Shown here piece after piece: positions 9,523-36,288 of a stretch of DNA of 44,889 nucleotides. Each line of letters starts with the position of its first letter. Position 1 is the stretch's first letter. The notes beneath the pieces were generated by a model. The model had not been told where the DNA came from, did no database searches, and worked only from the letters and a program-made list of their open reading frames with translations. Origin of the DNA: a virus; the IMG/VR virus record IMGVR_UViG_3300045996_000698, positions 1 to 44,889 of that record. The stretch is one strand, 5' to 3'. The position numbers and the translations under genes were made by a program.

Positions 9523-10671
9523 ATGCCCCTCGACATCGACCCTTGGAAGACGGCCGAGACGCTGCTCGCGAAGGCCGCGACGCCCGGCGATCTCGCGCTG
9601 ATCGAAGCCCTCGCCAAGAAGCTGGAGCCGCGTCTCGCCAAGGCGCTGCTCGAAGCCTTCAGCAAGGTCGCCGACTCGATCAACGTCGAGGCGCTGGCGA
9701 ACGCGCTGGCCAGCGGCAACGTCGAGCGCGCGATGTCAGCCCTCGGCCTCGACCAGCAAGGCGCGGCCTTCTCTGCCGTGCGCAGCGCGCTTGAGAGCGG
9801 CGTGTGGGATGCCGCGATGGCGACAGGCCCGCGCATCGAGCGCATCACGAAAGCCGAGTTCGAGTTCCGGCGGCTCAACCCCGTGCTCGTCGACTGGCTG
9901 GAGAACTACAACTTCAATCTGATCAAGGAGACGACGAAGAAGACGAAGGAAGCCGTGCAGGACGTGATGATCGAAGGCATGAAGGCCGGCGAGAACCCGC
10001 GCACGACGGCGCGCGAGGTCAAGAGCATCATCGGCCTCACGATGCGCCAGCGTCGAGCGGTGCGCGCGTTCCGGAAGGAGCTTGAAAACTTCCACAACAA
10101 GCGCAACGCCAACGACTGGAACCTCGGCGGCAAGATCAGCCGTGCGCCCGGTGGCGCGCAGACGTATGCCATCGACGAGAAGGGCGATCCGAAGGACGGC
10201 ATCAACGCGCGCCGGCTGCGAGACTTCCGCTTCGATGGCACGCTCGCCAAGGCCATCAAGACGAAGAAGCCGCTCACGAAGGCGCAAATCGACAAGATGG
10301 TGAAGGCCTACACGCGCAAGTATCTCAAGTTCCGGGCCGAGACCATCGCCCGCACCGAAGCGCAGCGCGCCAACATGGTCGGCGTGCAAGAGGCATGGCG
10401 GCAGATGATCGCGGACGGCAAGATCGCGGAGTCGCTCGTGCGCCGGCAGTGGATCGTGACGAAGGACGAACGGTCGTGCTTGATCTGCAAGCCGATCCCC
10501 AGCATGAACCCGCCGCTCGGCGTGCCCTTCGCGACGCCGTTCGCAACGCCCGTAGGCCCGATCATGCTCCCGCCCGGCCCGCACCCCCAATGCCGCTGCG
10601 CCGTCTTCATCCGCTTCTACGAGCCGCAGCAGCTTTCGCAGTTCGTCCCGGTCAAGAGCGTGCTGACATGA
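9523..10671 (+). CDS. MuF-type minor head protein
   Basis: Minor capsid protein of the Mu gpF / SPP1 gp7 type, expected inside or at the portal of the procapsid and sometimes ejected with DNA. The 382-residue product is helical for about 170 residues. It then shows the family signature near the C-terminus: ARTEAQRANMVGVQEAW, followed by WIVTKDERSCLICKPI and the closing PPGPHPQCRCAVFIRF with conserved Cys and His. It is first of the rightward virion operon. Portal and terminase, normally just upstream, are not here; leftward genes lie there instead. Confidence 0.88.
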   Translation: MPLDIDPWKTAETLLAKAATPGDLALIEALAKKLEPRLAKALLEAFSKVADSINVEALANALASGNVERAMSALGLDQQGAAFSAVRSALESGVWDAAMATGPRIERITKAEFEFRRLNPVLVDWLENYNFNLIKETTKKTKEAVQDVMIEGMKAGENPRTTAREVKSIIGLTMRQRRAVRAFRKELENFHNKRNANDWNLGGKISRAPGGAQTYAIDEKGDPKDGINARRLRDFRFDGTLAKAIKTKKPLTKAQIDKMVKAYTRKYLKFRAETIARTEAQRANMVGVQEAWRQMIADGKIAESLVRRQWIVTKDERSCLICKPIPSMNPPLGVPFATPFATPVGPIMLPPGPHPQCRCAVFIRFYEPQQLSQFVPVKSVLT

Positions 10672-10979
10672 CCGACAGGCCTATGCGCGGTAGCAACAGC
10701 GGCCCCGGTGGAAAGTTCGTCTTCGGCATCAGCGACGACATGGAGGCGTTCGACAATCTCACGCCTCACGAGCGCTTCGTGATCGCAACGTGCTGCCTGA
10801 AAATCTCTGCCATCGACTACAAGCAGGAGATGGCGAGCGATCCCTCGACGCTCTCGATGCTGGAGCGCTTCAGCTTCTATCCGATGGCTGATACTACTCG
10901 CGCGGCGCGACAGCAGCGTCAACTCGACCGGACTGCCATAGTGCTGATGCGACGGATCGGACGTTCTCGCCGAGCATAG
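10668..10979 (+). CDS. Small hypothetical protein after MuF
   Basis: A 103-residue frame whose ATG overlaps the MuF stop (ATGA). It begins MTDRPMRGSNSGPGGKFVFG and has a helical middle (TPHERFVIATCCLKISAIDY). The last 25 residues are Arg-rich and lower in quality (QRQLDRTAIVLMRRIGRSRR), so the gene may be frameshifted or truncated near 10890. No family recognised. Confidence 0.6.
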   Translation: MTDRPMRGSNSGPGGKFVFGISDDMEAFDNLTPHERFVIATCCLKISAIDYKQEMASDPSTLSMLERFSFYPMADTTRAARQQRQLDRTAIVLMRRIGRSRRA

Positions 10980-11097
10980 CAACGCACGTTTCGGTAGAAG
11001 GCGAATGACAGCGGTTCGATAATTCGGCAAGATCGGCTGCAATCGAAACAAGCCGCTTGTAAACGCCGAGGTCTGATTCCCGCTCCACGCGGGGAGA
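10980..11097 (+). other. Non-coding gap before the large head-operon gene
   Basis: 118 nt with no convincing gene and less GC than the surroundings. Just before the next start, CCCGC and GCGGG can pair so that the GGGGAGA ribosome-binding site of ATG 11098 sits at the hairpin edge. This could tune translation. I see no clear promoter. Confidence 0.4.
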
Positions 11098-14000
11098 ATG
11101 AACACGGCGCATTCGGCAGTACAAGAGTCGTCGCCGATGTCGTTTGTGGAAAACCTCGCAGCGTTGCGCGCCTCGACCTCGCTCACTCCCTTCGACAAGG
11201 CCAAGTGGGACAAGCGGCATCCGAAGGGCACGGCAGACGGCGGCAAGTTCGCTCCCGGCGATGGATCGTCGAGCGAGCCCTCGAAGAAGAAGCTCACCCA
11301 CAAGGAATGGCTCGCGAGCGTGCTCGGCCCGAAGTATGGCTACAGCGGCCAGCACGAGGAGCCCGACGACGACGGCGATCCGTTCGGCGCTTTCGGCGAC
11401 GAGTATGGCGGCCATCAGGGCAGCTTGCCTTACAGCGCACCGCTGCCGCCGCCCGGCTGGAAGCCGCATCCGAAGGTCGACGACAAGGGCAAGGAAGTCG
11501 TCATCCGCTATCCGAGCAAGCCCACCGACGAGAAGTCGTGGACCGATGCGACGCGCACTGCCACGTGGACGCCGGGCAGCAAGACGCCGCCCTCGCTCAA
11601 CGGCGTCGAGATGAAGCCGTGGGTTGCGCCGACGACGCCCGAAGGCTGGGCGAACGTGAGCGGGCAGAACCCTGACCTCCTCGATCCGCCGCTCGTGTCG
11701 AAGGTGCATTACACGTGGAAGGACAAGGACGGTCGCGAGCACTCGAAGCAGAAGCATCTCTCGACCGGCGTGCTGATCGTCGAGCCCGATGGCCGCGTGT
11801 GGATCACGAAGCCGACGAACGAATACGGCGGCTACCAGCACACTTTCCCGAAGGGCACCGTCGAGCCCGGCATCCCGTTGCAGGCGAACGCGATCAAGGA
11901 GGCATGGGAGGAGACCGGCCTCAAGGTGAAGATCGTCGGCGTGCTCGGCGACCACGAGCGCGACACGAGCGTCGCCCGCCTCTACGTCGCGCAGCGTGAA
12001 GGCGGCACCCCGTCCGACATGGGATGGGAGTCTCAGGCCATCAAGCTCGCGCCGATCTCGACGGTGAAGGGCGTGCTGCTCAACCGCACGCACGACAAGA
12101 AGATCGCCGACGATCTCCACGTGATCCTGAAGCGCACCGGCATCGCCAAGGCGTTCATCCCGTCGTCGAGCAAGGGCTACAAGCTGCCGGGAACCAACGT
12201 CAACGCGCCGTCGCACAACAAGAAGATCGACGCGATCCGCGCACTCGCGCGACAGGGCGATTGGAAGGGCATTCTGTCCCTGCCGTTCGGCACAAACAAC
12301 TATGCGAAGAAGCAGCAAGTCGGCTTCGCCAACAAGATGCTCGAAGAACTCGGCGTGCCCTACAAGGTGACGGCCGGGCAGAAGGCCAATTCCTTCATCA
12401 ATCTGCCGACTGGCAAGGTGCCCAACAGCGTTCGACAGGGCCTCGACGCGCTCGCACCGCCGGGCGCTGAGAAGTTCGCCGATCAGGGCGACAAGGTTTC
12501 CGAGTTCCAAGCGGCTGCACAGAAGGACATCGACGCGCTCACGCCGAAGCCGGCGCGCGCGAAGGCCGACGCGCCCGGCGGCGGTGGCGGCTTCGACGAG
12601 TCCAAGCATCCGCGTTGGCCGGCTGGAACGCCGATGGGCGGCAAGTTCAAGAAGAAGGATGACCTCGGCATCACCGAGCCCGCCGTCGACCCGAAGACCG
12701 GCAAGCCCTACTGGCACTTCCTCGACGCCTACAAGAAGGCGCAGGCCGGCAACGTGGCCGCGATCATCGCGAAAGACCCCGACTACTCGTCGCCGAAGAT
12801 GCAGGCGATGTGGAAGGACTACAAGGAGACGCTGCTCTCCGATCTCGAAGACAAGGCCAAGAAGACCGGGCAGGAACTCGGCGCGACCATCGACGTGAAG
12901 CCGGCGCTCGCCGACAGTCTCAAGGGCTCCGTGACCAGCGATGCCGGCAAGGCGTGGGTGAACGGCGTGGAGATTCCCCACACGAAGCACGAGGGCGCAT
13001 CGACGGCCATCGGCGTGATGGGCGCGGCGGCGGTCAAGGGCGACAAGGCGCTGCTCAACAAGACCATCGACGCCACCGAGCAGATGATGATGCAGGCGTC
13101 CGATCCTGAATCGTCGAAGGCGTGGCAGCAGGCCGGCAGCTTCGGCAACAAGCTCCTCGCCAAGATGGACGGGGACATCAAGACCGAGGCGACCGCGACG
13201 CGCGTCGGCGGCGTGCAGTCCATCAGCGAGTGGAAGAAGGTCGGCAACAAGCCCGGCGGCAGCAACCCCGGCGCGGTGTTCGAAGACAAGCACGGCACGA
13301 AGTGGCTCGTGAAGGGCAACGCCAAGCAACTGAGCGGCGAAGTCGACGACGTGACCAGCGACAACCGCGCCAAGAACGAAGTACTCGCCTCGAAGCTCAT
13401 GCAGGCGGCCGGCATCCCGGCGGTCGAGATGAAGCTCGTCGACCTCAACGGCCAGTTCGGCGGACAGAAGACCGGCCAGCACGGCAAGCTCGGCGTCGCG
13501 GTGAAGATGGTCCCCTTGAATGGCTGGACAGGAAGCGGCGCAGAGAAGATGCACACGCAGGAGCAGTTCGCGACGCATGCTTGGCTCGCCAACTACGACG
13601 TGATGGGCATGGGCAACGACAACATGGGCCTCAACACGAAGACCGGGCAGATGGTCAACATCGACCCCGGCGGCGCGCTGCTATTCCGCGCGCAAGGCCT
13701 GCCGAAGAAGGGCTTTGGCAACGTGGTCGACGAGTGGGACTCGATGCGCGATGCGTCGAAGAACCAATGGACCGCTGCCGTCTTCAAGCCGATGACCAGC
13801 GACCAACTGATCGAGAGCGTCAACGCGGTGAAGAAGGTCTCGCCCGCGATGATCCACGATCTCGTGAACACCTACGGTCCGGGCGATGCCTTGGCGAAGA
13901 TTGATCTCGCCGAAAAGCTCAAGGCCCGGCGGGTTGATCTCATCGCGAAGGCCGACAAGCTCAAGAACCCGGCCGGCACGGCGAGCGCAGCCGAGAAGGT

Positions 14001-16167
14001 CGGCGCGGTCGCCAACGCCGAGTTCGAGGCGAAGCACGCGCGCGGCGCGGACGGCAAGTTCATCTCCAAGCCCAACTATGAGGGCGTGACAGAGCATCAA
14101 AAGGTCGACCTCGACGGCGTTTATGCCGCCGCACTCGCCGGCAACCTCGGAGACCTCAAGGCGTATGCGCAGCACAGCAGCCCGCCGGCAAAGGCCTATG
14201 CACACTTCCTGCTTGCGGAAATGACGCCGAGCAGTGCTCCGAAGTCGCTCGACCTCCCGCTCGCCTCGAAGCCCACGCCCTACGCCGACATCATCCACGC
14301 GAACGCGTCGCTCTTTGCGAAGGACCCCACCGACAGCGAAGCGCTATTTCAGGTCAAAGACTTCATGAGCAGCCCCAACCCCGATACGGCTGCCTATGCA
14401 ACGAAGCTCTACGGGATGATCAACTCCCCGAAGCCGCCGAGCTACAGCGTCATGCCGCCGCCGCTGGAAGCAGAGAAGGAGCACAGCAAGATCGCGGCGA
14501 ACCTCTACGCCAAGGCGCAGGCCGGGAAGTGGTCGACGGGCGATCAGCTTGGCGAGAATGCCGGCGTCGTCGAGATCATGCAGAACATGCACGCGAGCGG
14601 GCTCAAGAGCGCCAACTACACGACGGAGATGGGCCACACCATCGCCTACGGCAACAACCTCCTCGCCGTGCAGGATTCGACCGAGGGCACGAACTATAAG
14701 TCGCTGCTCTATGGGGCGAAGGCTTCGGTGCTCGATGAACCGAAGGTCGCGCGCCCGGCCGGCGTGATGAAGCCGTCCGGCGAGAGCGACTCGTCACCCT
14801 CACCCGCGACGCCGAAGGCGATCCCGCCGGGCATGCCGGACTTCGACAGCAAGAAGCTCGCACTGACCAACGTGAACGCGGCCAGCGTCAACGCCAAGAT
14901 CGACAAGATCAAGTCGTTCGCCATGTCCGGCAACGAGCAAGGCCTGCTCGCGCTGGGCTACGGCACGAACAACTACGCCAAGTGGCACGTGAAGCACGCC
15001 AACGAAGCGCTCGCGGCCCTCGGCTCGAAGTATCAGGTGCAGCCGGGGCAGAAGCCCAACACTCACCCGGCGCTCGGCGTGAAGGACATGCCGGCTCCTG
15101 CTCCGACGAAGGTCGGTGAGAAGCCCGCGCCCGCGCAGCATGCGCCCTCGGCCGGCACGAAGACGTTGATCAAGGTGCCTGAGTCGGTGCTCCCGACCGC
15201 GCCTGACTTCGCCAACTGGCAGGGACAGGGCAAGGGCCTGTCGTCTATCGCCGAGATCAACGAGTCGAACAACGCGGCGGTGAGCTACGTCAAGCAGCTT
15301 GCCCTCAACGGCGACCTCGAAGCGCTGAAGAACGCGACATTCAAGGAGTTCAACAAGGACACGAAGGCCTTTACCGGCGCGACAAAGAGCTTCGCCGATC
15401 ATCCGTCGAAGTACGTGCAGTCGTATTGGTCCGGTACCATCGACGCGGTCAACGACATCGTCAACCCGCCGAAGCCGCTCGTGCTCGGCAGCAAGTTCTC
15501 GGCGACGACGTTGCAGGCGCTCGCGCGCGAGGCGACGCCCGTGCCGCTGATGACGAAGTTCGCGAAGGTCAAAGACGACCACAAGTTCGGCTTCTGGATC
15601 GCGCTTGGGCAGAGCAGCTTCGCCCCGCCGGCTCCGACTGCGACGCCGTTGTCGCCGGCTGAAATCTCGGCCGGCGCGAAGGCGTGGCAAAGCTATTCAT
15701 CGACGACGAAGACGCTCACGAATTACGTGCAGGGTAGCAGCGCGATCATGCACTCGTACCAGAACGGCGCGACCGAGCATGGCGGCAATAGCCTGATGGA
15801 ACTGTCGAAGGCAGCCGTGAAGGACGCTACGCCGCTGCCGGTCGGCAAGACGCTTTACCGCTGGCAGAACATGCCGAAGGGCATGATCGAGCAGTTGAAG
15901 CTACTGCAACCCGGCGCGATGATTCAGACCACGAGCCCGATGCCGTCGTCGCATCACCCGACCGCCACGCAGGGATTCGGAACGCATCTATTCCGGCTCC
16001 ACGCGGCCAAGGGGGCAGCGGCCCTGCACAGCCACGGCTCGGGCAGTCATCCGGTCGAGAAAGAGGTCACGATCCTCCCCTACCAGCGCTTCATGCTGCT
16101 CAAGAAGCAGTTCACCGGATCGAAGTGGGAAGTGGACTTGCTCATGCTGCCCCCGACGAAGGAGTAA
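11098..16167 (+). CDS. Large polyvalent head-operon protein: Nudix, kinase-like and ADP-ribosyltransferase signatures
   Basis: A 1689-residue protein. Residues 215-350 are Nudix-like: G253...E268-A-W-E271-E272-T-G274, with the three metal-binding Glu kept but Glu259 replaced by Ile and Arg267 by Lys. Residues 700-950 look like a HipA/PI-kinase type fold: K739 in WLVKG, N832-Y-D834...N842, then N-I-D856-P-G-G. The C-terminus has the R-S-E pattern of arginine-type ADP-ribosyltransferases: R1588 (LYRW), T1611-T-S1613, E1654-K-E1656. A GTNNYAK module is duplicated (about 370-455 and 1260-1330) and a GGKF-type motif occurs three times (about 46, 514, 983). No signal peptide. Its position between MuF and the protease suggests packaging in the head and delivery with DNA, like T4 Alt, but this is inference. 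Confidence 0.8.
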   Translation: MNTAHSAVQESSPMSFVENLAALRASTSLTPFDKAKWDKRHPKGTADGGKFAPGDGSSSEPSKKKLTHKEWLASVLGPKYGYSGQHEEPDDDGDPFGAFGDEYGGHQGSLPYSAPLPPPGWKPHPKVDDKGKEVVIRYPSKPTDEKSWTDATRTATWTPGSKTPPSLNGVEMKPWVAPTTPEGWANVSGQNPDLLDPPLVSKVHYTWKDKDGREHSKQKHLSTGVLIVEPDGRVWITKPTNEYGGYQHTFPKGTVEPGIPLQANAIKEAWEETGLKVKIVGVLGDHERDTSVARLYVAQREGGTPSDMGWESQAIKLAPISTVKGVLLNRTHDKKIADDLHVILKRTGIAKAFIPSSSKGYKLPGTNVNAPSHNKKIDAIRALARQGDWKGILSLPFGTNNYAKKQQVGFANKMLEELGVPYKVTAGQKANSFINLPTGKVPNSVRQGLDALAPPGAEKFADQGDKVSEFQAAAQKDIDALTPKPARAKADAPGGGGGFDESKHPRWPAGTPMGGKFKKKDDLGITEPAVDPKTGKPYWHFLDAYKKAQAGNVAAIIAKDPDYSSPKMQAMWKDYKETLLSDLEDKAKKTGQELGATIDVKPALADSLKGSVTSDAGKAWVNGVEIPHTKHEGASTAIGVMGAAAVKGDKALLNKTIDATEQMMMQASDPESSKAWQQAGSFGNKLLAKMDGDIKTEATATRVGGVQSISEWKKVGNKPGGSNPGAVFEDKHGTKWLVKGNAKQLSGEVDDVTSDNRAKNEVLASKLMQAAGIPAVEMKLVDLNGQFGGQKTGQHGKLGVAVKMVPLNGWTGSGAEKMHTQEQFATHAWLANYDVMGMGNDNMGLNTKTGQMVNIDPGGALLFRAQGLPKKGFGNVVDEWDSMRDASKNQWTAAVFKPMTSDQLIESVNAVKKVSPAMIHDLVNTYGPGDALAKIDLAEKLKARRVDLIAKADKLKNPAGTASAAEKVGAVANAEFEAKHARGADGKFISKPNYEGVTEHQKVDLDGVYAAALAGNLGDLKAYAQHSSPPAKAYAHFLLAEMTPSSAPKSLDLPLASKPTPYADIIHANASLFAKDPTDSEALFQVKDFMSSPNPDTAAYATKLYGMINSPKPPSYSVMPPPLEAEKEHSKIAANLYAKAQAGKWSTGDQLGENAGVVEIMQNMHASGLKSANYTTEMGHTIAYGNNLLAVQDSTEGTNYKSLLYGAKASVLDEPKVARPAGVMKPSGESDSSPSPATPKAIPPGMPDFDSKKLALTNVNAASVNAKIDKIKSFAMSGNEQGLLALGYGTNNYAKWHVKHANEALAALGSKYQVQPGQKPNTHPALGVKDMPAPAPTKVGEKPAPAQHAPSAGTKTLIKVPESVLPTAPDFANWQGQGKGLSSIAEINESNNAAVSYVKQLALNGDLEALKNATFKEFNKDTKAFTGATKSFADHPSKYVQSYWSGTIDAVNDIVNPPKPLVLGSKFSATTLQALAREATPVPLMTKFAKVKDDHKFGFWIALGQSSFAPPAPTATPLSPAEISAGAKAWQSYSSTTKTLTNYVQGSSAIMHSYQNGATEHGGNSLMELSKAAVKDATPLPVGKTLYRWQNMPKGMIEQLKLLQPGAMIQTTSPMPSSHHPTATQGFGTHLFRLHAAKGAAALHSHGSGSHPVEKEVTILPYQRFMLLKKQFTGSKWEVDLLMLPPTKE
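12208..12460 (+). repeat. GTNNYAK module, first copy
   Basis: Protein-level repeat in the large protein, residues about 371-455. Shared pattern with the second copy: N-x-KID-x-I, then G-x-L-x-L-x2-GTNNYAK, AN-x2-L-x2-LG, Y-x-V-x2-GQK-x-N. Function unknown. Confidence 0.7.
14863..15080 (+). repeat. GTNNYAK module, second copy
   Basis: Residues about 1256-1330 of the large protein. It repeats the first copy at about half the positions, including the exact GTNNYAK and GQK. This indicates an internal duplication older than the present sequence. Confidence 0.7.
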
Positions 16168-16174
16168 CGCCACC

Positions 16175-16660
16175 ATGCCTATCGACGTTCGGCCAATCGC
16201 CGATCCTGTCGCACTTGAGGGCGTCTTCCCCTCCGGCGGCAAGCCCTACCTCGGCAGCCCCGAAGTAGTCGACGATCTCGTGAAGGGCCTGATGGGCACC
16301 GCGCGAGACTACGTCCGGAACGCGATGAAGCGCGTGGACCCGGAAGACAACCGCCGCGCCATGATGGGCAAGATCGCCGAGACGAAGTCGATCCTGCTAG
16401 GGCAGACGGACCGCTACTCGCCGACTCCGTTCAACACAACCGGCGAGATCGCGCGCTACCTCGCGGGCCGCTACGGCATGCAGGACGATCCCGATCCGCT
16501 CGGGGGTATCCTCGCCAAGATCGCGCTGGACACGGTAAAGCTGTACAAATCGTGGCAGTTGGATCAGATTAGCGACGCCGAGTGTGAGACTCAGCTTGAG
16601 GCCATCAGGACGGAAGCGACACGCGACCTCTTGGGGCTGCCCAACGACAAGGCCGACTGA
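16175..16660 (+). CDS. Hypothetical head-operon protein
   Basis: A 161-residue protein between the large polyvalent protein and the protease. It begins MPIDVRPIADPVALEGVFPS and is mostly helical after residue 35 (EVVDDLVKGLMGTARDYVRN). Its stop overlaps the protease start by TGATG. Possibly a head assembly or internal protein. No domain recognised. Confidence 0.7.
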   Translation: MPIDVRPIADPVALEGVFPSGGKPYLGSPEVVDDLVKGLMGTARDYVRNAMKRVDPEDNRRAMMGKIAETKSILLGQTDRYSPTPFNTTGEIARYLAGRYGMQDDPDPLGGILAKIALDTVKLYKSWQLDQISDAECETQLEAIRTEATRDLLGLPNDKAD

Positions 16661-17091
16661 TGTCCGACGAGAAGAAGCCCGCGACCTTCAGCGCGTTCGT
16701 AGCCTTCGACAAAGCATCGTCTTCCCCCACCGGCGAGTATGTGCGCGGTTGGCTCTCGGTCTCGACCGATGCGAAGGGCAATCCGGTTGTCGACGATCAG
16801 GACGATCAGGTTGTGATCAGCGAGATCACGAAGGCGGCCCACGTCTTCATCAGCAAGAGCCGCGACGGCAAGGTGATGCACAAGGGCCAGCCGGTCGGCG
16901 AGTTCGTCGAGTCGGTCATCATCGACGACGAGTTCGCCGCTGCGCATGGAATTGTCCACAAGCAGCGCGGATGGTGGGGCACCTTCCACGTGCTCGACGC
17001 CGATGTCCGCAAGGATGTCGTCGCCGGCAAGTTCAAGGGCTTTTCCATCGGCGGGGATGGCACCCGCGTCACGCGTCGGAGGAAGAAGTAA
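16660..17091 (+). CDS. XkdF-type prohead protease domain
   Basis: Serine protease that would mature the procapsid by cutting scaffold and capsid proteins. The 143-residue product matches the XkdF (peptidase S78-like) core: GWLSVSTD, DDQVVISEITKAAHVFI, a candidate catalytic His in VMHKGQPVGEFVES, a WWGTFHV strand, and the serine motif GKFKGFSIGG. It ends soon after this motif in a basic tail (RVTRRRKK). The stop overlaps the next start (TAATG), and the following gene begins with what normally follows in XkdF proteins. Confidence 0.82.
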   Translation: MSDEKKPATFSAFVAFDKASSSPTGEYVRGWLSVSTDAKGNPVVDDQDDQVVISEITKAAHVFISKSRDGKVMHKGQPVGEFVESVIIDDEFAAAHGIVHKQRGWWGTFHVLDADVRKDVVAGKFKGFSIGGDGTRVTRRRKK

Positions 17092-18797: not shown

Positions 18798-19781
18798 ATG
18801 GAGCCGACGACTTCCGACGTTCATGTCAATGGCCCGCTGACCAACATCAGCATCGCCTTCATGCAGGGCGAGGATGCCTTCATCGCCAACAAGGTGTTCC
18901 CCAACATCCCGGTCACGAAGCAGAGCGACCTCTACTTCACCTACGACCGCGGCGAGTTCAACCGCGACGACATGAAGGAACGCGCGCCGGGCACCGAAGC
19001 GGAGGGCGGCGGCTACACGATGAATGCTGACGCGAGCTACTACGCTCGCCAGTATTCGTTCAAGCACGACATCCCCGATCCGGTGCGCGCCAACGCCGAC
19101 GTGCCCCACAACCCGGACCGCGCCGCGACGATGTTCGTGTCGCGCAAGGGCCTGATCCGCCGCGAGCGCATCTTCGCGACGAACTACTTCTCCACGGGCC
19201 TGTGGACCTACGGCAAGGTCGGCGCCTCCTCGGCGTCGGGCACCGATGTCAAGTATTGGAGCGACACCACGTCGACTCCGATCACCGACGTTCGCCTCGG
19301 CAAGCAGCGCGTGCTGGAGAGCACGGGCTTCGAGCCCAACACGCTGATCTTGGGCCGCAAGGTCTATGACGTGCTGTGCGATCACCCGTCGTTCCTCGAC
19401 CGCATCAAGTATGGGCAGGACAACGCCGTCCCGGCCCGCGTGACGCGCGCTGCCATGGCGCAGCTTTTCGAGGTCGACAACGTCTACGTGATGAACGCGA
19501 TCTACAACACGGCCGCCAAGGGTCAGACCGCGTCGCACTCCTTCATCGGCGGCAATCACGCGCTGCTCATGTATGTCACCCCGACGCCCGACATCATGAC
19601 GCCGACTGCCGGCTACACCTTCTCGTGGACCGGCATGTTCGGCAACAGCCAGCTTGGCACCCGCATCCGCCAGTACCGCATGGAGTCGATCCAGTCGGAC
19701 CGCGTCGAGATCGATATGTGCTTCGACCTGAAGCTCGTGTCGGCGGACCTCGGCTACTTCTTCACCAGCGTCATCCAGTAA
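18798..19781 (+). CDS. Major capsid protein (HK97 fold)
   Basis: A 327-residue main shell protein. It shows the pattern of phage major capsid proteins with FIANKVFPNIPVTKQSDLYF, then YDRGEFNRDD, a GGGYTMNADASYYARQY strand region and IPDPVRANADVPHNPDRAAT. The C-terminal third is beta-rich (YTFSWTGMFGNSQLGTRIRQ). It follows the decoration protein and is followed directly by a strong terminator. No long N-terminal delta domain is present, which fits with a separate scaffold. Confidence 0.88.
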   Translation: MEPTTSDVHVNGPLTNISIAFMQGEDAFIANKVFPNIPVTKQSDLYFTYDRGEFNRDDMKERAPGTEAEGGGYTMNADASYYARQYSFKHDIPDPVRANADVPHNPDRAATMFVSRKGLIRRERIFATNYFSTGLWTYGKVGASSASGTDVKYWSDTTSTPITDVRLGKQRVLESTGFEPNTLILGRKVYDVLCDHPSFLDRIKYGQDNAVPARVTRAAMAQLFEVDNVYVMNAIYNTAAKGQTASHSFIGGNHALLMYVTPTPDIMTPTAGYTFSWTGMFGNSQLGTRIRQYRMESIQSDRVEIDMCFDLKLVSADLGYFFTSVIQ

Positions 19782-20520: not shown

Positions 20521-21126
20521 ATGGCGCTGATCGTCGAAGACGGCACGGGCAAGGTTGACGCGGAGTCCTACGAGTCCGTCGCCAACTACACGACGTATTG
20601 CGCCGCGCGCGGCCTCGACCTCGGCGCGGCGACCGATGCCGACAAGGAAGCCGACTTGCGCAAGGGCACGGCCTTCCTCGACGGCTACTTCCGCCTCCGG
20701 GGCATTCGCGGCAGCGCCACGCAGGCGCTCGAATTTCCGCGCGCTGCCGGCACGCTCGACCGAGACGGCTACGAGATCACCGGAGTCCCGCTGGCCATCA
20801 AGCATGCTGCTTGCGAGATGGGCTTCGCGGCGCGCAGCGCGCCCGACAACGACGTGCTGCCCAACACGACTGTCGGCATCAAGAGCGAGACGGTCGGGCC
20901 GATCAGCACGACCTACATGGACGGCATGGCTGCCACGCCGAGCTATCCCAAGGTGGTCGGCATGCTGCGCCGTTACACGCGGCTCGACGAGCCCGTTCCT
21001 GTGCCGCTGTCGATGGCCCCCACGAGCGAGCCGTTCTTCGGCGTCGATCTGCACGAGTCGGTCGGCGGTCCGATCCCCGGCGCGGACGAGCAGACGGACG
21101 ATCTCACGCTCGAAGACAATGCGTAG
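20521..21126 (+). CDS. Head-tail adaptor (DnaT-like domain family)
   Basis: A 201-residue protein. The start MALIVEDGTGKVDAESYESV, the DLRKGTAFLDGYF helix, the LEFPRAAG motif and VPLAIKHAACEMGFA match the family annotated as 'DnaT-like ssDNA binding'. In phage operons at this position it behaves as the first head-tail connector (gp6/gp15 type). The C-terminal 50 residues are acidic. It binds below the portal ring by analogy. Confidence 0.75.
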   Translation: MALIVEDGTGKVDAESYESVANYTTYCAARGLDLGAATDADKEADLRKGTAFLDGYFRLRGIRGSATQALEFPRAAGTLDRDGYEITGVPLAIKHAACEMGFAARSAPDNDVLPNTTVGIKSETVGPISTTYMDGMAATPSYPKVVGMLRRYTRLDEPVPVPLSMAPTSEPFFGVDLHESVGGPIPGADEQTDDLTLEDNA

Positions 21127-24963: not shown

Positions 24964-27900
24964 GTGGCTGATGCTCCTCTCTCCTTCAGCGTAAACACCG
25001 ACGAGATCGTTAAGTCGAAAGAGGCGGTCGACGCCCTGACCGACTCGACGTTGAAGCTCGCCGATGCGGTGGACAAGCAGGATCAGTCGCAGTCCAAGGT
25101 CTCGCAGAAGCGGCGCTCGCAATACGACGACACCTTCGCCCAAGGGTCTCGCGCCAAGGTCTTGATCGAGTCGCAGTCCAAGGGCGAGGAAGTTCTCGCC
25201 AAGGCGGTCGAGCAAACGACCATCCGCTTGCGCGAGCAGACGAACGTGGCCGGGGCAGTGCGCGCTGCCCATCAGCAACTCGCGCAGGCCACTCGGCAGA
25301 ACGTGACCGAGCTTGTCGAGCAGGAGCGCGTGAAGCTCCGCATCAGCAACGTCGACCGCGCCATCGTGAACTCGCTGATCGGCGGCGGCGGCATGGATAC
25401 GGCGCTGCGCAGGGTCGCGACCTCGATGGCTCTCAACACGGCGGCGAGCGCGGCCATGATCGGCGGATGGGCTGCGGTCGCCGTCGCGGGCACCGCTGCC
25501 GTCGCGGGATACCTCTACCTCGGCAAGGCCATCGCCGAGTTGACCGAAGCGCAGCAGTTGCAGGAGCGGCGCATCCAGTCGTTCGTTGGCAGCGGGCAGC
25601 AGGCCGTCGTCGTCTACAAGGACATCGCGCGCTACGCCTACGAGACCGGCCAGTCCATCGACGCCGCCAGCGCCAAGTTCGTCAACTTCTACAAGGCGAC
25701 CGCCGGCATGGGGGTCATGGCGAGCGGTGCGCTCGGCGTCTCCTCGACCACGGACAAGATCGCGTCTCTCTCCGGCGCGACCGACGCGGAACGCGGCGCT
25801 GCCAGCGGCGCGCTCGCCAAGATGCTCGCGCAGTCGACCGTGTCGGCCGCCGATCTAAAGTCGGTCCTCGATTCCGTGCCGGCCATCGCCGACAACATCG
25901 CGCGCGGCATGGGGCTCACGGTCCAGCAGCTTCGCCTGATGGCAGTCGAGGGTCGGCTCACGAACGAGCAGGTCTTCGCTGCCATGCTCAAGCAGCAGAA
26001 GGAGATCAACGACGAAGCCGCGAAGATGCCGCGCACGATCTCCGGCAGCTTTCAGCAGATCGGCAACGATCTTCAGCAGATCATCGTGCGCTACTCGCAG
26101 CTTTTGCCGATGGCCGCTCAGTTCAAGCTGCTCCTCGAAGGCACGCGCATCGCGGCGGCGGAACTCAACAAGGCGACCACGCCCGCCACGCCGGAGCAGA
26201 AGAACGACAGCCTCCTGCGTGACATCGGCGCATCGTCTCGTCTCGGCGCGCTCAACCCGCTCTACAACAACAACCGCTACAGCCGGGAATACTTCAGCAA
26301 TCAGTTCGACGCTGGCGTGCAGGCGAACGGCCAGATCACCGAGCAAATCCGCCGGCAGACCGAAGCGCTGCAACAGCAAGTAGTCGCGGCCATCGAGGTC
26401 GCGCGGACCTACGACAAGCTCGCCGGATCGTCGCAGAAGTACACGACCGAGATCGCCATGATGGAGAAGGCCATCGAAGGTCTCGCGAGCGGCTTCAGCG
26501 GCCTGCCTGTCGACGAAGCCACGTCCAAGATCGAGCAGCTTACCGAAGCGATCCGCCTTGCCCGGCAGGAAGCGAGCCAGCTTGCGACGCCCTACGGCAA
26601 GGCGCTCGAATCCATGGGCACGCTCTACGATCAGAACCGGCGCGGCCTCACGCCGGCACAGGCGGCCTACGAAGGGCGCGTTGCGGAGCACATGAAGGGC
26701 GGTGCGCCCAACGAAGACGCTGCCAAGCGGCTCGCCGACGCCGAGAGCATCGAGCAGTTGAAGCAGTTGCTCGACAAGAAGGCGATGCAGGTCGACATGG
26801 AGGAGCGCGTCACCGCTTCCATGAAGAAGGGCGCGGCGGCCACGCGCGCGGCGCAGGTCGAACTCGCGGTGATGAACCTCGTGCTCAGTCAGGTCGGCGT
26901 GAGCAGCGAAGCGGCACAGGTGCAGTTCGATGCGCTGATGGAGAAGTTTCGCTCGCTTGAGACGCGCTCCGTCGAGACCACGAGCGCGCGCGGCGGCATC
27001 AACGCCAGCAAGCAATACCTCGACGAGCTTGCGGGCATCGCCGCGCAGATGAAGGTCGTCGAGCAGGGCGCATACGCCATGCGTCGGGCCGAAGCCGAGG
27101 CGCGCGCCTCGCGTTCGGATGACGGCACCGGCAAGCTCCAGCTTGAGGCCTTCGATGCCAAGCAGGGCCTCACCGACGCCAACACCATCGCCAACCTCAA
27201 GCAGGAGATCGAGCTAACGAACAAGCTCGCTGCGGCGGCCGGCGACGTGGCCAAGCAGAAGAAGCTCCAACTCGAATACGACATCACCCGCGCGCAGAAG
27301 GATGCTGCCCCGGCGTCCCGCCCGGCTATCGCAGCCGAGATGACCGCTCGCGCCACCGCCGAGACCAATCGGCAGTTGGCCGAGGGCGTCGCGCAGATGG
27401 AGAAGCAGCTTGAGCTTGGGCAGCAGGAGCTTGGCGTCATCACCGAGGGCGCGGCTGGCTATGCGGCGCAGATCGCCATGCTTCAGAAGAAGCGCGATCT
27501 CCAGCAGCAGGGCATTGATGTCGAAAACGACGCGAACGCGAGGCGGCAGGTCGAGCTTGCCGGCCAGCTTGCCGCGCTCGAACAGCAGAAGGGACTCGCC
27601 CGGCAGGCGGCTGACGAGCAGAAGCGCATTTGGCAGGGCGTGGCCGACAATATCCAGAAGGCCGGCTCCGACGCCTTCTTCGAGCTTTTCCAAGGGCAAG
27701 TGCCCAACGCGCAGCAGTTCGCCAACACGCTGAAAAACATCTTCCTGCGCGCCTTCGCCGACATCGCCGCTGCGGCGATCATCCGGCCGATCATCGCTCC
27801 GATCTTTCAGGGCGCGGCCGGCATGGGGCTTATCTCGCCGCAGGCGGCCATCTCGGCCAACGGTGGCTATGGCGGCGGGACTGGCGGGACCGGAGGGGCC

Positions 27901-29616
27901 AGCGGCCTCGGCGGCTTCCAGATGCCAAATATGGGCATCGGCAGCGGCATGTTCGGCTTCCTCAACCGGCCGATCATGCCGCAAACCATCGACGCGCAGA
28001 TCGCCAACTGGTCGACCTATGGCACGTCGGCGCAGAACAGCCTCAACGGCGGCTTCCTCTCGAACACGACGTGGGGGCAGGGGCTCGGCGCGCTCGCTGG
28101 CGCTGGCATGGGCGTCTACAATCTCGCCACGGCCAACGGCAACACCGGCAAGACCATCGGCGGCATCGCCTCGCTGGTCGGCGCGGGCGTGAGCCTGATC
28201 CCCGGCATCGGACAGGTTGCCGGCCCGCTCATCGGCATGCTCGGCGGCCTGCTCCCCGGCCTGTTCGGCGAGGAGCAGCCGAAGCTGCCGCCGATCTCCG
28301 GAGCCAACGCGAGCTTCAACTGGAATCCGCAGACCGGGAAGTACTCGACCTCGACCTCGACCATGAATGGCGGGCAGGACATCTCCGGCCAGTACAAGGG
28401 CGCGGTCAACAGCATCCAAGAGCTTTACAAGCTGGTCGGCGGCATCACCGACCCGAGCAAGGTCTACGGCTTCTCTGTCTGGAACAACGAACGCGACAAG
28501 ACCGGCTCGACCTACCTCACCGGCCCGGACGGCTTCTCGCAGAAGTGGGGACAGGGCTCGACGCCGAAGGACATCGGCGCGGAGACCGTCGCGGCACAGG
28601 CCGCGTATCTCACGATCCTCGAAGCGACGAAGATCAGCGACAACATGCGCACGGCGCTGGATCGGCTGGGCAAGGAAGCGCGCGACAGCAACACGCCCAT
28701 CGAGAGCGTCGGCGCGGTCGCCGAAGTGGTGCAGTCGGTCAAGGCGTTCGACGATGCCATCAAGGGAATCGGCAAGAGCAGCAACATCGCCGAAGAAGCG
28801 CTCAAGGCTATCGACGACAAGTTCGTCGCTCTCTACGACACCGCGAAGAAGTATGGCTTCGACGCGACCGGCCTCGACGCTGAGAAGGCGAGGCAGCGGT
28901 TCGGCGTCGCCGAAGACTTCACGAAGGGCCTCGACCGGCAACTGATGACGGCGGCCGACGCCGCGCTATTCGACATCGCAGAGGAGCGCAAGCAGGCCAA
29001 CGAGATCAACGACGTGCTGAAGAACGCCGACATCTCCGGCTTCGTCGATCAGGCTCTAAAGATCGAGCAAATCTATCAGCGCAAGCGGCTGGCGATCTTG
29101 GAGGAGGGCAACCGGGCCACTGCCGATGCGCAGAAGGCTGCCGTCGATGCCGCTACCCGTGCGGCTGAAGTGGCGGCCAACCGCGTGCGCGGCATCGAGC
29201 AACTGATCAAGGAACTCACCTACTCGCAGCAGAGCCCTGCTACCAGCATCGAGATCGCGCAAGGCGAATACAACGCCATGCTGGCGCGCGCGCAGAAGGG
29301 CGACGAACGCGCTATCGCCGACATCTCCTCGGTGGGCTCGGAATACAACAACATGCTGCGCGCCGGCCTCGGATCAACGCCCGGATACTTCCGCGAGATC
29401 GAGCGGATGCGGACCGAATTGCGCGATCTCGTCGTGCGCTTCGGCGCGCCGGCCGGCTCGACCTCTGTGATCACCGAAGCGTCCGACTCCAACCTCCGGC
29501 GCATGCTTGAGGCCTCGCTCGCGTCGCAGGACGCGCTGGCGCGCAAGCTCGACAAGGTGATGTCGACGCTGGTCGGGGTTGTCGGCGAATCCGCGCGGGC
29601 GGCGCTCTACTCGTGA
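24964..29616 (+). CDS. Tape measure protein
   Basis: Sets tail length and is ejected through the tail. 1550 residues from GTG 24964. Residues 155-188 are hydrophobic (AAMIGGWAAVAVAGTAAVAG). Residues about 280-380 carry the tape measure core (STVSAADLKSVLDSVPAIAD, then GRLTNEQVFAAMLKQ, then TISGSFQQIGNDLQQ). The middle is coiled coil with many Gln/Lys/Glu. Residues about 1064-1102 are again hydrophobic (ASLVGAGVSLIPGIGQVAGP). The last 300 residues are helical. At about 0.15 nm per residue the tail would be about 230 nm, a long siphovirus tail (inference). Confidence 0.92.
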   Translation: MADAPLSFSVNTDEIVKSKEAVDALTDSTLKLADAVDKQDQSQSKVSQKRRSQYDDTFAQGSRAKVLIESQSKGEEVLAKAVEQTTIRLREQTNVAGAVRAAHQQLAQATRQNVTELVEQERVKLRISNVDRAIVNSLIGGGGMDTALRRVATSMALNTAASAAMIGGWAAVAVAGTAAVAGYLYLGKAIAELTEAQQLQERRIQSFVGSGQQAVVVYKDIARYAYETGQSIDAASAKFVNFYKATAGMGVMASGALGVSSTTDKIASLSGATDAERGAASGALAKMLAQSTVSAADLKSVLDSVPAIADNIARGMGLTVQQLRLMAVEGRLTNEQVFAAMLKQQKEINDEAAKMPRTISGSFQQIGNDLQQIIVRYSQLLPMAAQFKLLLEGTRIAAAELNKATTPATPEQKNDSLLRDIGASSRLGALNPLYNNNRYSREYFSNQFDAGVQANGQITEQIRRQTEALQQQVVAAIEVARTYDKLAGSSQKYTTEIAMMEKAIEGLASGFSGLPVDEATSKIEQLTEAIRLARQEASQLATPYGKALESMGTLYDQNRRGLTPAQAAYEGRVAEHMKGGAPNEDAAKRLADAESIEQLKQLLDKKAMQVDMEERVTASMKKGAAATRAAQVELAVMNLVLSQVGVSSEAAQVQFDALMEKFRSLETRSVETTSARGGINASKQYLDELAGIAAQMKVVEQGAYAMRRAEAEARASRSDDGTGKLQLEAFDAKQGLTDANTIANLKQEIELTNKLAAAAGDVAKQKKLQLEYDITRAQKDAAPASRPAIAAEMTARATAETNRQLAEGVAQMEKQLELGQQELGVITEGAAGYAAQIAMLQKKRDLQQQGIDVENDANARRQVELAGQLAALEQQKGLARQAADEQKRIWQGVADNIQKAGSDAFFELFQGQVPNAQQFANTLKNIFLRAFADIAAAAIIRPIIAPIFQGAAGMGLISPQAAISANGGYGGGTGGTGGASGLGGFQMPNMGIGSGMFGFLNRPIMPQTIDAQIANWSTYGTSAQNSLNGGFLSNTTWGQGLGALAGAGMGVYNLATANGNTGKTIGGIASLVGAGVSLIPGIGQVAGPLIGMLGGLLPGLFGEEQPKLPPISGANASFNWNPQTGKYSTSTSTMNGGQDISGQYKGAVNSIQELYKLVGGITDPSKVYGFSVWNNERDKTGSTYLTGPDGFSQKWGQGSTPKDIGAETVAAQAAYLTILEATKISDNMRTALDRLGKEARDSNTPIESVGAVAEVVQSVKAFDDAIKGIGKSSNIAEEALKAIDDKFVALYDTAKKYGFDATGLDAEKARQRFGVAEDFTKGLDRQLMTAADAALFDIAEERKQANEINDVLKNADISGFVDQALKIEQIYQRKRLAILEEGNRATADAQKAAVDAATRAAEVAANRVRGIEQLIKELTYSQQSPATSIEIAQGEYNAMLARAQKGDERAIADISSVGSEYNNMLRAGLGSTPGYFREIERMRTELRDLVVRFGAPAGSTSVITEASDSNLRRMLEASLASQDALARKLDKVMSTLVGVVGESARAALYS

Positions 29617-36211: not shown

Positions 36212-36288
36212 GGCAGGGTGGAGCAGTCTGGTAGCTCGCGTGGCTCATAACCACGAGGTCGCGGGTTCAAATCCCGCCCCTGCTCCCA
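36212..36288 (+). tRNA. tRNA-Met (CAT), initiator-like
   Basis: 77 nt forming a full cloverleaf with encoded CCA. Acceptor GGCAGGG / CCCTGCT, D stem GAGC/GCTC, anticodon stem CGTGG/CCACG with loop CTCATAA, T stem GCGGG/CCCGC with loop TTCAAAT. The order and spacing match bacterial initiator tRNA (GTGGAGCAG-CTGGTAGCTC). Only a weak G-U forms at position 1:72, in line with initiator tRNAs, but only two of the three consecutive G-C pairs at 29-31:39-41 are present. It lies within the lysis region, away from other tRNAs. Confidence 0.9.

What the first reader, a model, noticed from the sequence alone, without database searches (positions are those of the whole stretch)
11098..16167. Multi-enzyme 1689-residue protein inside the head operon
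One polypeptide has a Nudix box, a kinase-like region and an R-S-E ADP-ribosyltransferase end, joined by repeated modules. It lies between MuF and the prohead protease, where phages often encode internal head proteins. T4 ejects the ADP-ribosyltransferase Alt with its DNA, and MuF-toxin fusions are known; here the effectors are in a separate very large protein. A packaged NAD-handling and protein-modifying cocktail acting at the start of infection is a plausible new system.
Basis: partly seen in the sequence, partly recalled or inferred. Interest (0 to 1): 0.88.

Follow-up and report, generated by a model that had tools for sequence, protein, structure and literature searches.

The report
Swappable toxin on phage head cargo
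The giant gene really encodes a three-enzyme protein (Nudix, kinase-like, ADP-ribosyltransferase) of a kind that phages probably pack in their heads and inject; unexpectedly, its ADP-ribosyltransferase end is exchanged between phages as a unit together with a small neighbouring gene, much as toxin-antidote pairs are.

Summary
Confirmed: one open frame of 1689 codons lies at 11098-16167, between a MuF-family gene and an XkdF-type prohead protease gene. All three enzyme claims hold. The Nudix domain is a Pfam match (8e-12). The middle domain folds as an atypical kinase (pLDDT 90; nearest CtkA, then HipT/HipA) with catalytic K-E-D-N-D invariant in 60 relatives. The C-terminus folds as a C3/VIP2-like ART (pLDDT 89; ExE invariant in 58). 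Relatives are common (over 550 kinase loci), and some fuse MuF or another minor capsid protein to the kinase and ART, which supports head packaging but does not prove it. "Polyvalent" packaged effectors are already described, so the class is known. ART and small gene vary together, independently of the Nudix-kinase core, and two pairs of near-identical phages differ in just this cassette, one junction lying 2-14 bases past the small gene's stop. The Nudix resembles Ap4A hydrolase/RppH, not an NAD enzyme. I read it as head cargo with a constant Nudix-kinase core and an exchangeable ART-plus-partner end. Ejection, catalysis and the partner's role are inferred.

The parts
11098..16167 (+). 1689-aa multi-enzyme protein (180 kDa, pI 9.1)
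   Evidence: ORF and translation, frame and GC3, relatives
11215..11250 (+). tag copy 1, RHPKGTADGGKF, before the Nudix domain
11467..12120 (+). Nudix domain with its conserved N-terminal extension (residues 124-341); Nudix box around residues 253-276
   Evidence: PF00293 E 8.2e-12; 43-47% identical to stand-alone Nudix proteins of named phages; closest solved structure Ap4A hydrolase 3i7u
12193..12396 (+). ~70-residue helical module, copy 1 (residues 366-433)
12607..12648 (+). tag copy 2, HPRWPAGTPMGGKF, in the linker before the kinase block
13165..13962 (+). CtkA/HipA-like kinase domain (residues 690-955)
   Evidence: AlphaFold2 and Foldseek; invariant K739, E761, D834, N842, D856; HipA_C below cut-off in 21 of 60 members
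14035..14061 (+). tag copy 3, HARGADGKF, after the kinase
14866..15075 (+). ~70-residue helical module, copy 2 (residues 1257-1326)
15190..15534 (+). conserved helical region just before the ART (residues 1365-1479)
   Evidence: alignment A2
15535..16164 (+). C3/VIP2-like ADP-ribosyltransferase domain (residues 1480-1689; R1588, P-S-S 1616-1618, E1654, E1656)
16175..16660 (+). 161-aa acidic (pI 4.8) partner gene, exchanged together with the ART in relatives
9523..10671 (+). MuF-family minor head protein (382 aa), upstream context
   Evidence: PF04233 E 2.9e-8; PHROG head morphogenesis 2e-62
16660..17091 (+). XkdF-type prohead protease, downstream context
   Evidence: PF14550 E 4.2e-12
18798..19781 (+). 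major capsid protein, downstream context
   Evidence: PF03864; PHROG major head protein 3e-91

Best explanation
The gene encodes a head-cargo ('polyvalent') effector. It is made with the head proteins late in infection, packed inside the capsid next to MuF and the portal, and ejected with the DNA into the next host. Its constant part, short tags plus a Nudix hydrolase plus a CtkA/HipA-like kinase, serves as carrier and general-purpose early effector. Its variable end is an ADP-ribosyltransferase that modifies host proteins. The small acidic gene directly downstream encodes a partner specific to that ART, most likely an inhibitor or dedicated chaperone that keeps it harmless or packable in the producing cell. 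ART and partner are therefore exchanged between phages as one cassette. Shown here: domains, folds, conserved catalytic residues, head-operon position, MuF-kinase-ART fusions in relatives, and exchange of ART plus partner with its boundaries. Inferred: packaging, ejection, enzyme activity, targets, and the partner's biochemical role.
For: Folds and catalytic residues. Head-operon order MuF - Nudix-kinase-ART - partner - protease - capsid protein is kept in many independent contigs. Single-polypeptide fusions: MuF-Nudix-kinase-ART (L090, 2043 aa), MuF-kinase-ART (L197), minor capsid protein 2-kinase-ART (L202), MuF-kinase (L201, L204). Homologues of ART, partner and Nudix all labelled particle-associated in fHe-Yen8-01. 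Related head operons lacking both big gene and partner exist: Roseobacter phage RDJL Phi 2, Pseudomonas phage KPP23. Partner follows the ART in 73/79 proteins, versus 0/27 kinase proteins without a detected ART. In 50 loci where the partner lies between ART and Nudix genes, partner-ART partial correlation is 0.79 and partner-Nudix 0.17, while Nudix-kinase is 0.75 and ART-kinase 0.02. On the Nudix+kinase tree the ART type changes 17 times and the partner type goes with it in 10 of 12 independent pairs, never the other way (p about 0.002). L056/L052: 97% nucleotide identity on both sides, ART 21% and partner 23% identical between; breaks lie just after the kinase and 14 nt past the partner's stop. 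L182/L183: same pattern, resuming 2 nt past the stop.
Against: No proteomics exists for this phage, and the particle-associated label in fHe-Yen8-01 also covers primase and methyltransferases. A 180-kDa protein must unfold or be cut to pass a siphovirus tail. The window ART has P in place of the first Ser of STS. Partner homologues are too divergent (about 20% identity) to name a fold, and orphan or tandem partner genes, a usual sign of immunity genes, were not seen in the loci held, which were however sampled by their kinase, ART or Nudix. Part of the partner-ART covariation could be simple adjacency, although the partner is equally adjacent to the Nudix gene in the 50 loci tested.
Confidence: 0.66

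Rival explanations
1. Polymorphic toxin with immunity: the ART is a weapon against cells or rival phages that lack the matching small protein, and the small gene protects the producing or lysogenised cell (MuF-toxin model).
For: ART and downstream small gene are exchanged together, with boundaries at the small gene's stop codon, the exchange pattern of toxin-immunity modules. MuF toxins are followed by small ORFs in 89% of cases (PMC5576092), and the prophage-encoded ART toxin Bxa has a binding immunity protein, Bsi (PMC11699363).
Against: No integrase was found in the window record, so lysogeny is not evident (the record may be a fragment). No orphan partner genes were seen. The partner homologue of fHe-Yen8-01 is labelled particle-associated, which fits a virion chaperone better than a cytoplasmic antidote.
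Confidence: 0.35
2. The small gene is an ART-specific packaging chaperone or adaptor, and the ART serves only to reprogram the phage's own host (T4 Alt-like).
For: Tight pairing with the ART; particle-associated label for the partner in fHe-Yen8-01; acidic partner with a basic ART.
Against: Chaperones usually need not be exchanged at every change of cargo; nothing shows binding.
Confidence: 0.3
3. The protein is an assembly factor or acts only in the producing cell late in infection, and is not ejected.
For: Position among head genes; large size with repeated helical modules.
Against: Related head operons lack it altogether, so it is not needed for assembly; catalytic residues are invariant across dozens of relatives; the ~90-kb phages carry it as separate genes outside the core head operon.
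Confidence: 0.12
4. The main role is counter-defence: Nudix and kinase destroy or block nucleotide signals or stress responses, and the ART is secondary.
For: Nudix and kinase form the co-varying constant core (partial correlation 0.75). The Nudix resembles Ap4A hydrolase/RppH. Counter-signal roles for packaged Nudix proteins were proposed in PMC9503650.
Against: No substrate evidence; the kinase is also found without Nudix and often with an ART in MuF fusions.
Confidence: 0.2

Closest known systems
Polyvalent proteins of phages (Iyer et al. 2017, PMC5512222; 2022, PMC9503650)
   Same: Several enzymatic domains in one large polypeptide encoded among virion genes, including ARTs; predicted to be packaged and injected. 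The 2022 paper also proposes packaging of Nudix proteins and describes MuF-ART fusions.
   Different: The kinase described in 2017 lacks the whole C-terminal subdomain and occurs mainly in Verrucomicrobia-Chlamydia and Bacteroidetes (pro)phages; the kinase here is CtkA/HipA-like. Text searches of both papers showed no Nudix-kinase-ART order, no ART-specific partner gene and no exchange of the pair (figures not readable).
MuF polymorphic toxins of temperate phages (Jamet et al. 2017, PMC5576092)
   Same: Head-protein-linked toxin domain at the C-terminus, often an ART, followed by a small ORF thought to be immunity.
   Different: In the window MuF is a separate gene and the carrier is a Nudix-kinase protein; the paper does not mention kinase or Nudix domains.
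T4 Alt (head-packaged mono-ADP-ribosyltransferase)
   Same: R-S-E class ART fold, proposed to enter the host with the DNA.
   Different: Alt is one ART protein encoded elsewhere in the genome; no Nudix or kinase domain and no co-exchanged partner (my own knowledge plus PMC5512222).
Bxa / Bsi / BAH of Bacteroides prophages (PMC11699363)
   Same: Prophage-encoded ART toxin with a small protein, Bsi, that binds and blocks it.
   Different: Homology of the small protein here to Bsi was not tested; different carrier.
CtkA (Helicobacter pylori) and HipA/HipT kinases
   Same: Best structural matches of the kinase domain (TM 0.59 for CtkA, 0.42 for HipT); K, E, D, N, D all conserved.
   Different: 11-13% identity; here it is a phage head-cargo domain with no PHROG family for the window copy and only sub-cut-off HipA_C matches.

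Membership tests
Phage polyvalent (packaged multi-domain) proteins | two or more distinct enzymatic domains in one polypeptide | tested here: met
Phage polyvalent (packaged multi-domain) proteins | encoded among virion genes | tested here: met
   MuF, protease and capsid genes adjacent; conserved synteny
Phage polyvalent (packaged multi-domain) proteins | present in the virion and injected | not testable with these tools
   indirect only: MuF fusions and label in fHe-Yen8-01
ADP-ribosyltransferase, C3/VIP2-like (R-S-E) | ART fold | tested here: met
   Foldseek C3/VIP2 E about 1e-8
ADP-ribosyltransferase, C3/VIP2-like (R-S-E) | Arg, STS motif and ExE | tested here: inconclusive
   R1588 and E1654/E1656 present; STS reads P-S-S in the window (30 of 58 sequences have S, 25 have C and 3 have P at the first position)
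Nudix hydrolase | Nudix family profile and box with catalytic Glu | tested here: met
   PF00293 above cut-off; KExxEExGL in place of RExxEExGU
ADP-ribose/NAD-type Nudix | closest to ADP-ribose or NAD pyrophosphatases | tested here: not met
   best named matches are Ap4A hydrolase, Ndx1 and RppH; by sequence only, substrate not tested
HipA/CtkA-like kinase | kinase fold with catalytic K, E, D, N, D | tested here: met
HipA_C (Pfam PF07804) | score above the curated cut-off | tested here: not met
   18.8 bits against 30.5
MuF polymorphic toxin | toxin fused to a MuF domain | tested here: not met
   MuF is a separate gene in the window; fused in some relatives
MuF polymorphic toxin | exchangeable toxin end with a downstream small gene | tested here: met
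   (exchange seen in relatives)
MuF polymorphic toxin | small gene product neutralises the toxin | not testable with these tools
   needs co-expression

The most novel reading that the evidence does not exclude
A head-packaged polymorphic toxin system of tailed phages, distinct from MuF toxins. A Nudix-kinase carrier protein with packaging tags delivers an exchangeable ART, and the neighbouring small gene is its matched antidote, so that phages with different cassettes exclude or poison each other's hosts; the CtkA/HipA-like kinase would be a virion-delivered kinase of a kind not described before.
Probability: 0.3. Interest if true: 0.88.

Novelty: new variant of a known kind. Interest (0 to 1): 0.72.

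Why it matters
Packaged, injected phage enzymes are mostly predictions. This family is widespread, has relatives in cultured phages of laboratory-friendly hosts such as Pseudomonas putida, and comes with natural experiments: near-identical phages that differ in the ART-plus-partner cassette. That makes 'what do injected ARTs do, and how does the producing cell survive them' directly testable. It also brings to light a large unannotated family of CtkA/HipA-like kinase domains in phage head cargo.

Tried and rejected
A kinase profile search of PDB sequences found nothing meaningful; the relation appeared only by fold. Family and PDB searches with the small partner gave only scattered chance-like helical matches, and no contig scan was possible because its alignment is too variable. 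tblastn of the partner against named phages found nothing. Splitting the partner into two clusters gave an uninformative tree test; the four-cluster split used was chosen after seeing that, so its p-value should be read with that in mind, while the nucleotide-level swaps do not depend on clustering. No paper on fHe-Yen8-01 is in the library, so its particle-associated labels could not be checked at source. An assembly chimera was considered for L056 and rejected: L132, a separate assembly, carries the same arrangement at 99-100% identity. The long minus-strand ORF 10894-13578 is taken as a shadow of high-GC coding DNA.

Full report
Observation. The 1689-codon frame at 11098-16167 is real: ATG start with a purine-rich box, 88% GC at third positions, relatives in named phages and hundreds of viral contigs. 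The operon around it is a head operon: MuF-family minor head protein upstream (PF04233), then, downstream of the big gene, a 161-aa gene, an XkdF-type prohead protease (PF14550), a further head gene, a 143-aa gene and the major capsid protein.

Domains. Residues 124-341 form a Nudix module, 43-47% identical to stand-alone Nudix proteins of phages ST4, Dolphis, Mecenats66, Touem01, phiT5282EW and fHe-Yen8-01. Its best named solved relatives are Ap4A hydrolase, Ndx1 and RppH, not ADP-ribose or NAD pyrophosphatases. Residues 690-955 fold with confidence (pLDDT 90) into an atypical kinase whose nearest solved structure is H. pylori CtkA, followed by HipT and HipA; Lys739, Glu761, Asp834, Asn842 and Asp856 are invariant in 60 diverse sequences. 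Pfam and PHROGs do not name this domain. Residues 1480-1689 fold as a C3/VIP2-like ADP-ribosyltransferase; the ExE pair is invariant in 58 sequences, and ART domains of most named-phage relatives tested reach Pfam ADPrib_exo_Tox above cut-off. The first Ser of STS is Pro in the window.

Linkers. A ~70-residue helical module occurs twice. A short tag, consensus about RWPxGSxxGGQF, stands before the Nudix and again between Nudix and kinase in many fused relatives, and three times in the window: at least one copy in 41 of 69 fused proteins (1.04 copies per protein against 0.003 in shuffled sequence), and in only 6 of 5727 other ORFs. Its role is unknown; a packaging tag or protease site are the obvious tests.

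Architecture across relatives. Two arrangements recur: a fused Nudix-kinase-ART protein in the head operon, MuF upstream and the small gene plus protease downstream, as in the window; and split genes in order kinase-ART, small gene, Nudix, in ~90-kb phages. In bacterial genomes and viral contigs the kinase is fused to MuF or minor capsid protein 2, often with an ART: L090 (MuF-Nudix-kinase-ART), L197 (MuF-kinase-ART), L202 (minor capsid protein 2-kinase-ART), L201 and L204 (MuF-kinase). Such fusions are the best available evidence for head location. In fHe-Yen8-01 the ART, small and Nudix proteins are labelled particle-associated, but so are several replication proteins, so I weigh this lightly. 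The related head operons of RDJL Phi 2 and KPP23 lack both the big and the small gene, so these are accessory cargo.

The partner. The 161-aa gene has homologues directly after the ART in 73 of 79 ART proteins, and after none of 27 kinase proteins without a detected ART (some of those C-termini look like divergent ARTs by eye, so this contrast is softer than the numbers suggest). In 50 split loci, where the small gene touches both ART and Nudix genes, its divergence follows the ART (partial correlation 0.79) and not the Nudix (0.17; bootstrap difference 0.44-0.76), while Nudix and kinase follow each other (0.75) across the intervening genes. On a Nudix+kinase tree of 78 loci the ART type changes 17 times and the partner type changes with it (10 of 12 independent pairs, none opposite). 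Two pairs of near-identical phages show the exchange directly: L056/L052 (97% nucleotide identity on both sides) and L182/L183 (89-93%) differ in ART (about 21% identity) and partner (23-31%). The exchanged stretch begins shortly after the kinase and ends 14 and 2 nt after the partner's stop codon; a helical module inside it stays recognisable at 81-87%. A separate assembly, L132, confirms the L056 form. This is how toxin-immunity modules of polymorphic toxins are exchanged, and it also fits an effector with its own chaperone.

Mechanism. I take the protein to be packaged near the portal, ejected with the DNA, and active on host proteins, with the partner holding the ART in check or in packable form in the producing cell. 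Domain content, conservation, synteny, fusions and cassette exchange are shown; packaging, ejection, catalysis, targets and partner function are inferred.

Relation to the known. Polyvalent injected proteins (PMC5512222), virion-packaged ART and Nudix enzymes (PMC9503650), MuF toxins (PMC5576092) and a prophage ART with binding immunity (PMC11699363) are all described. New as far as I could find: the Nudix-kinase-ART order as a widespread family, the CtkA/HipA-like kinase as head cargo, and the demonstrated co-exchange of ART and partner.

Noticed in passing
L205, L206, L225, L231 (Pseudomonas syringae-group and P. tremae chromosomes): Kinase-Nudix two-domain proteins of 560-773 aa without a detected ART; whether they lie in prophages was not checked.
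   Followed up: no
L207, L209, L235, L240, L243, L247, L250, L251, L253 and L011: The same kinase domain sits inside 2700-4500-aa proteins in actinobacterial, Gastranaerophilales and other bacterial contigs and in Actinomycetia phage DSL-LC01; other domains unidentified.
   Followed up: partly
window 11215-11250, 12607-12648, 14035-14061: Short RxP..GGKF/GGQF tag recurring at fixed places in fused relatives; a looser HPRxxDGKF form recurs in other head-linked proteins.
   Followed up: partly
window 10683-10979: Possible ~98-aa ORF between MuF and the big gene, starting MRGSNSGPGGKFVF, itself reminiscent of the tag.
   Followed up: no
L163, L166, L180: Some split loci carry the kinase twice, once fused to ART and once fused to Nudix.
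   Followed up: no
window 1-44889: Virus record without detectable integrase or tail sheath; tape measure protein at 24964-29616, DnaT-like protein at 20521-21126, one tRNA-Met at 36212-36288.
   Followed up: partly
L182, L183: The closest relatives in a bacterial genome bin are two contigs of one Hyphomicrobiales MAG, which hints at an alphaproteobacterial host.
   Followed up: no
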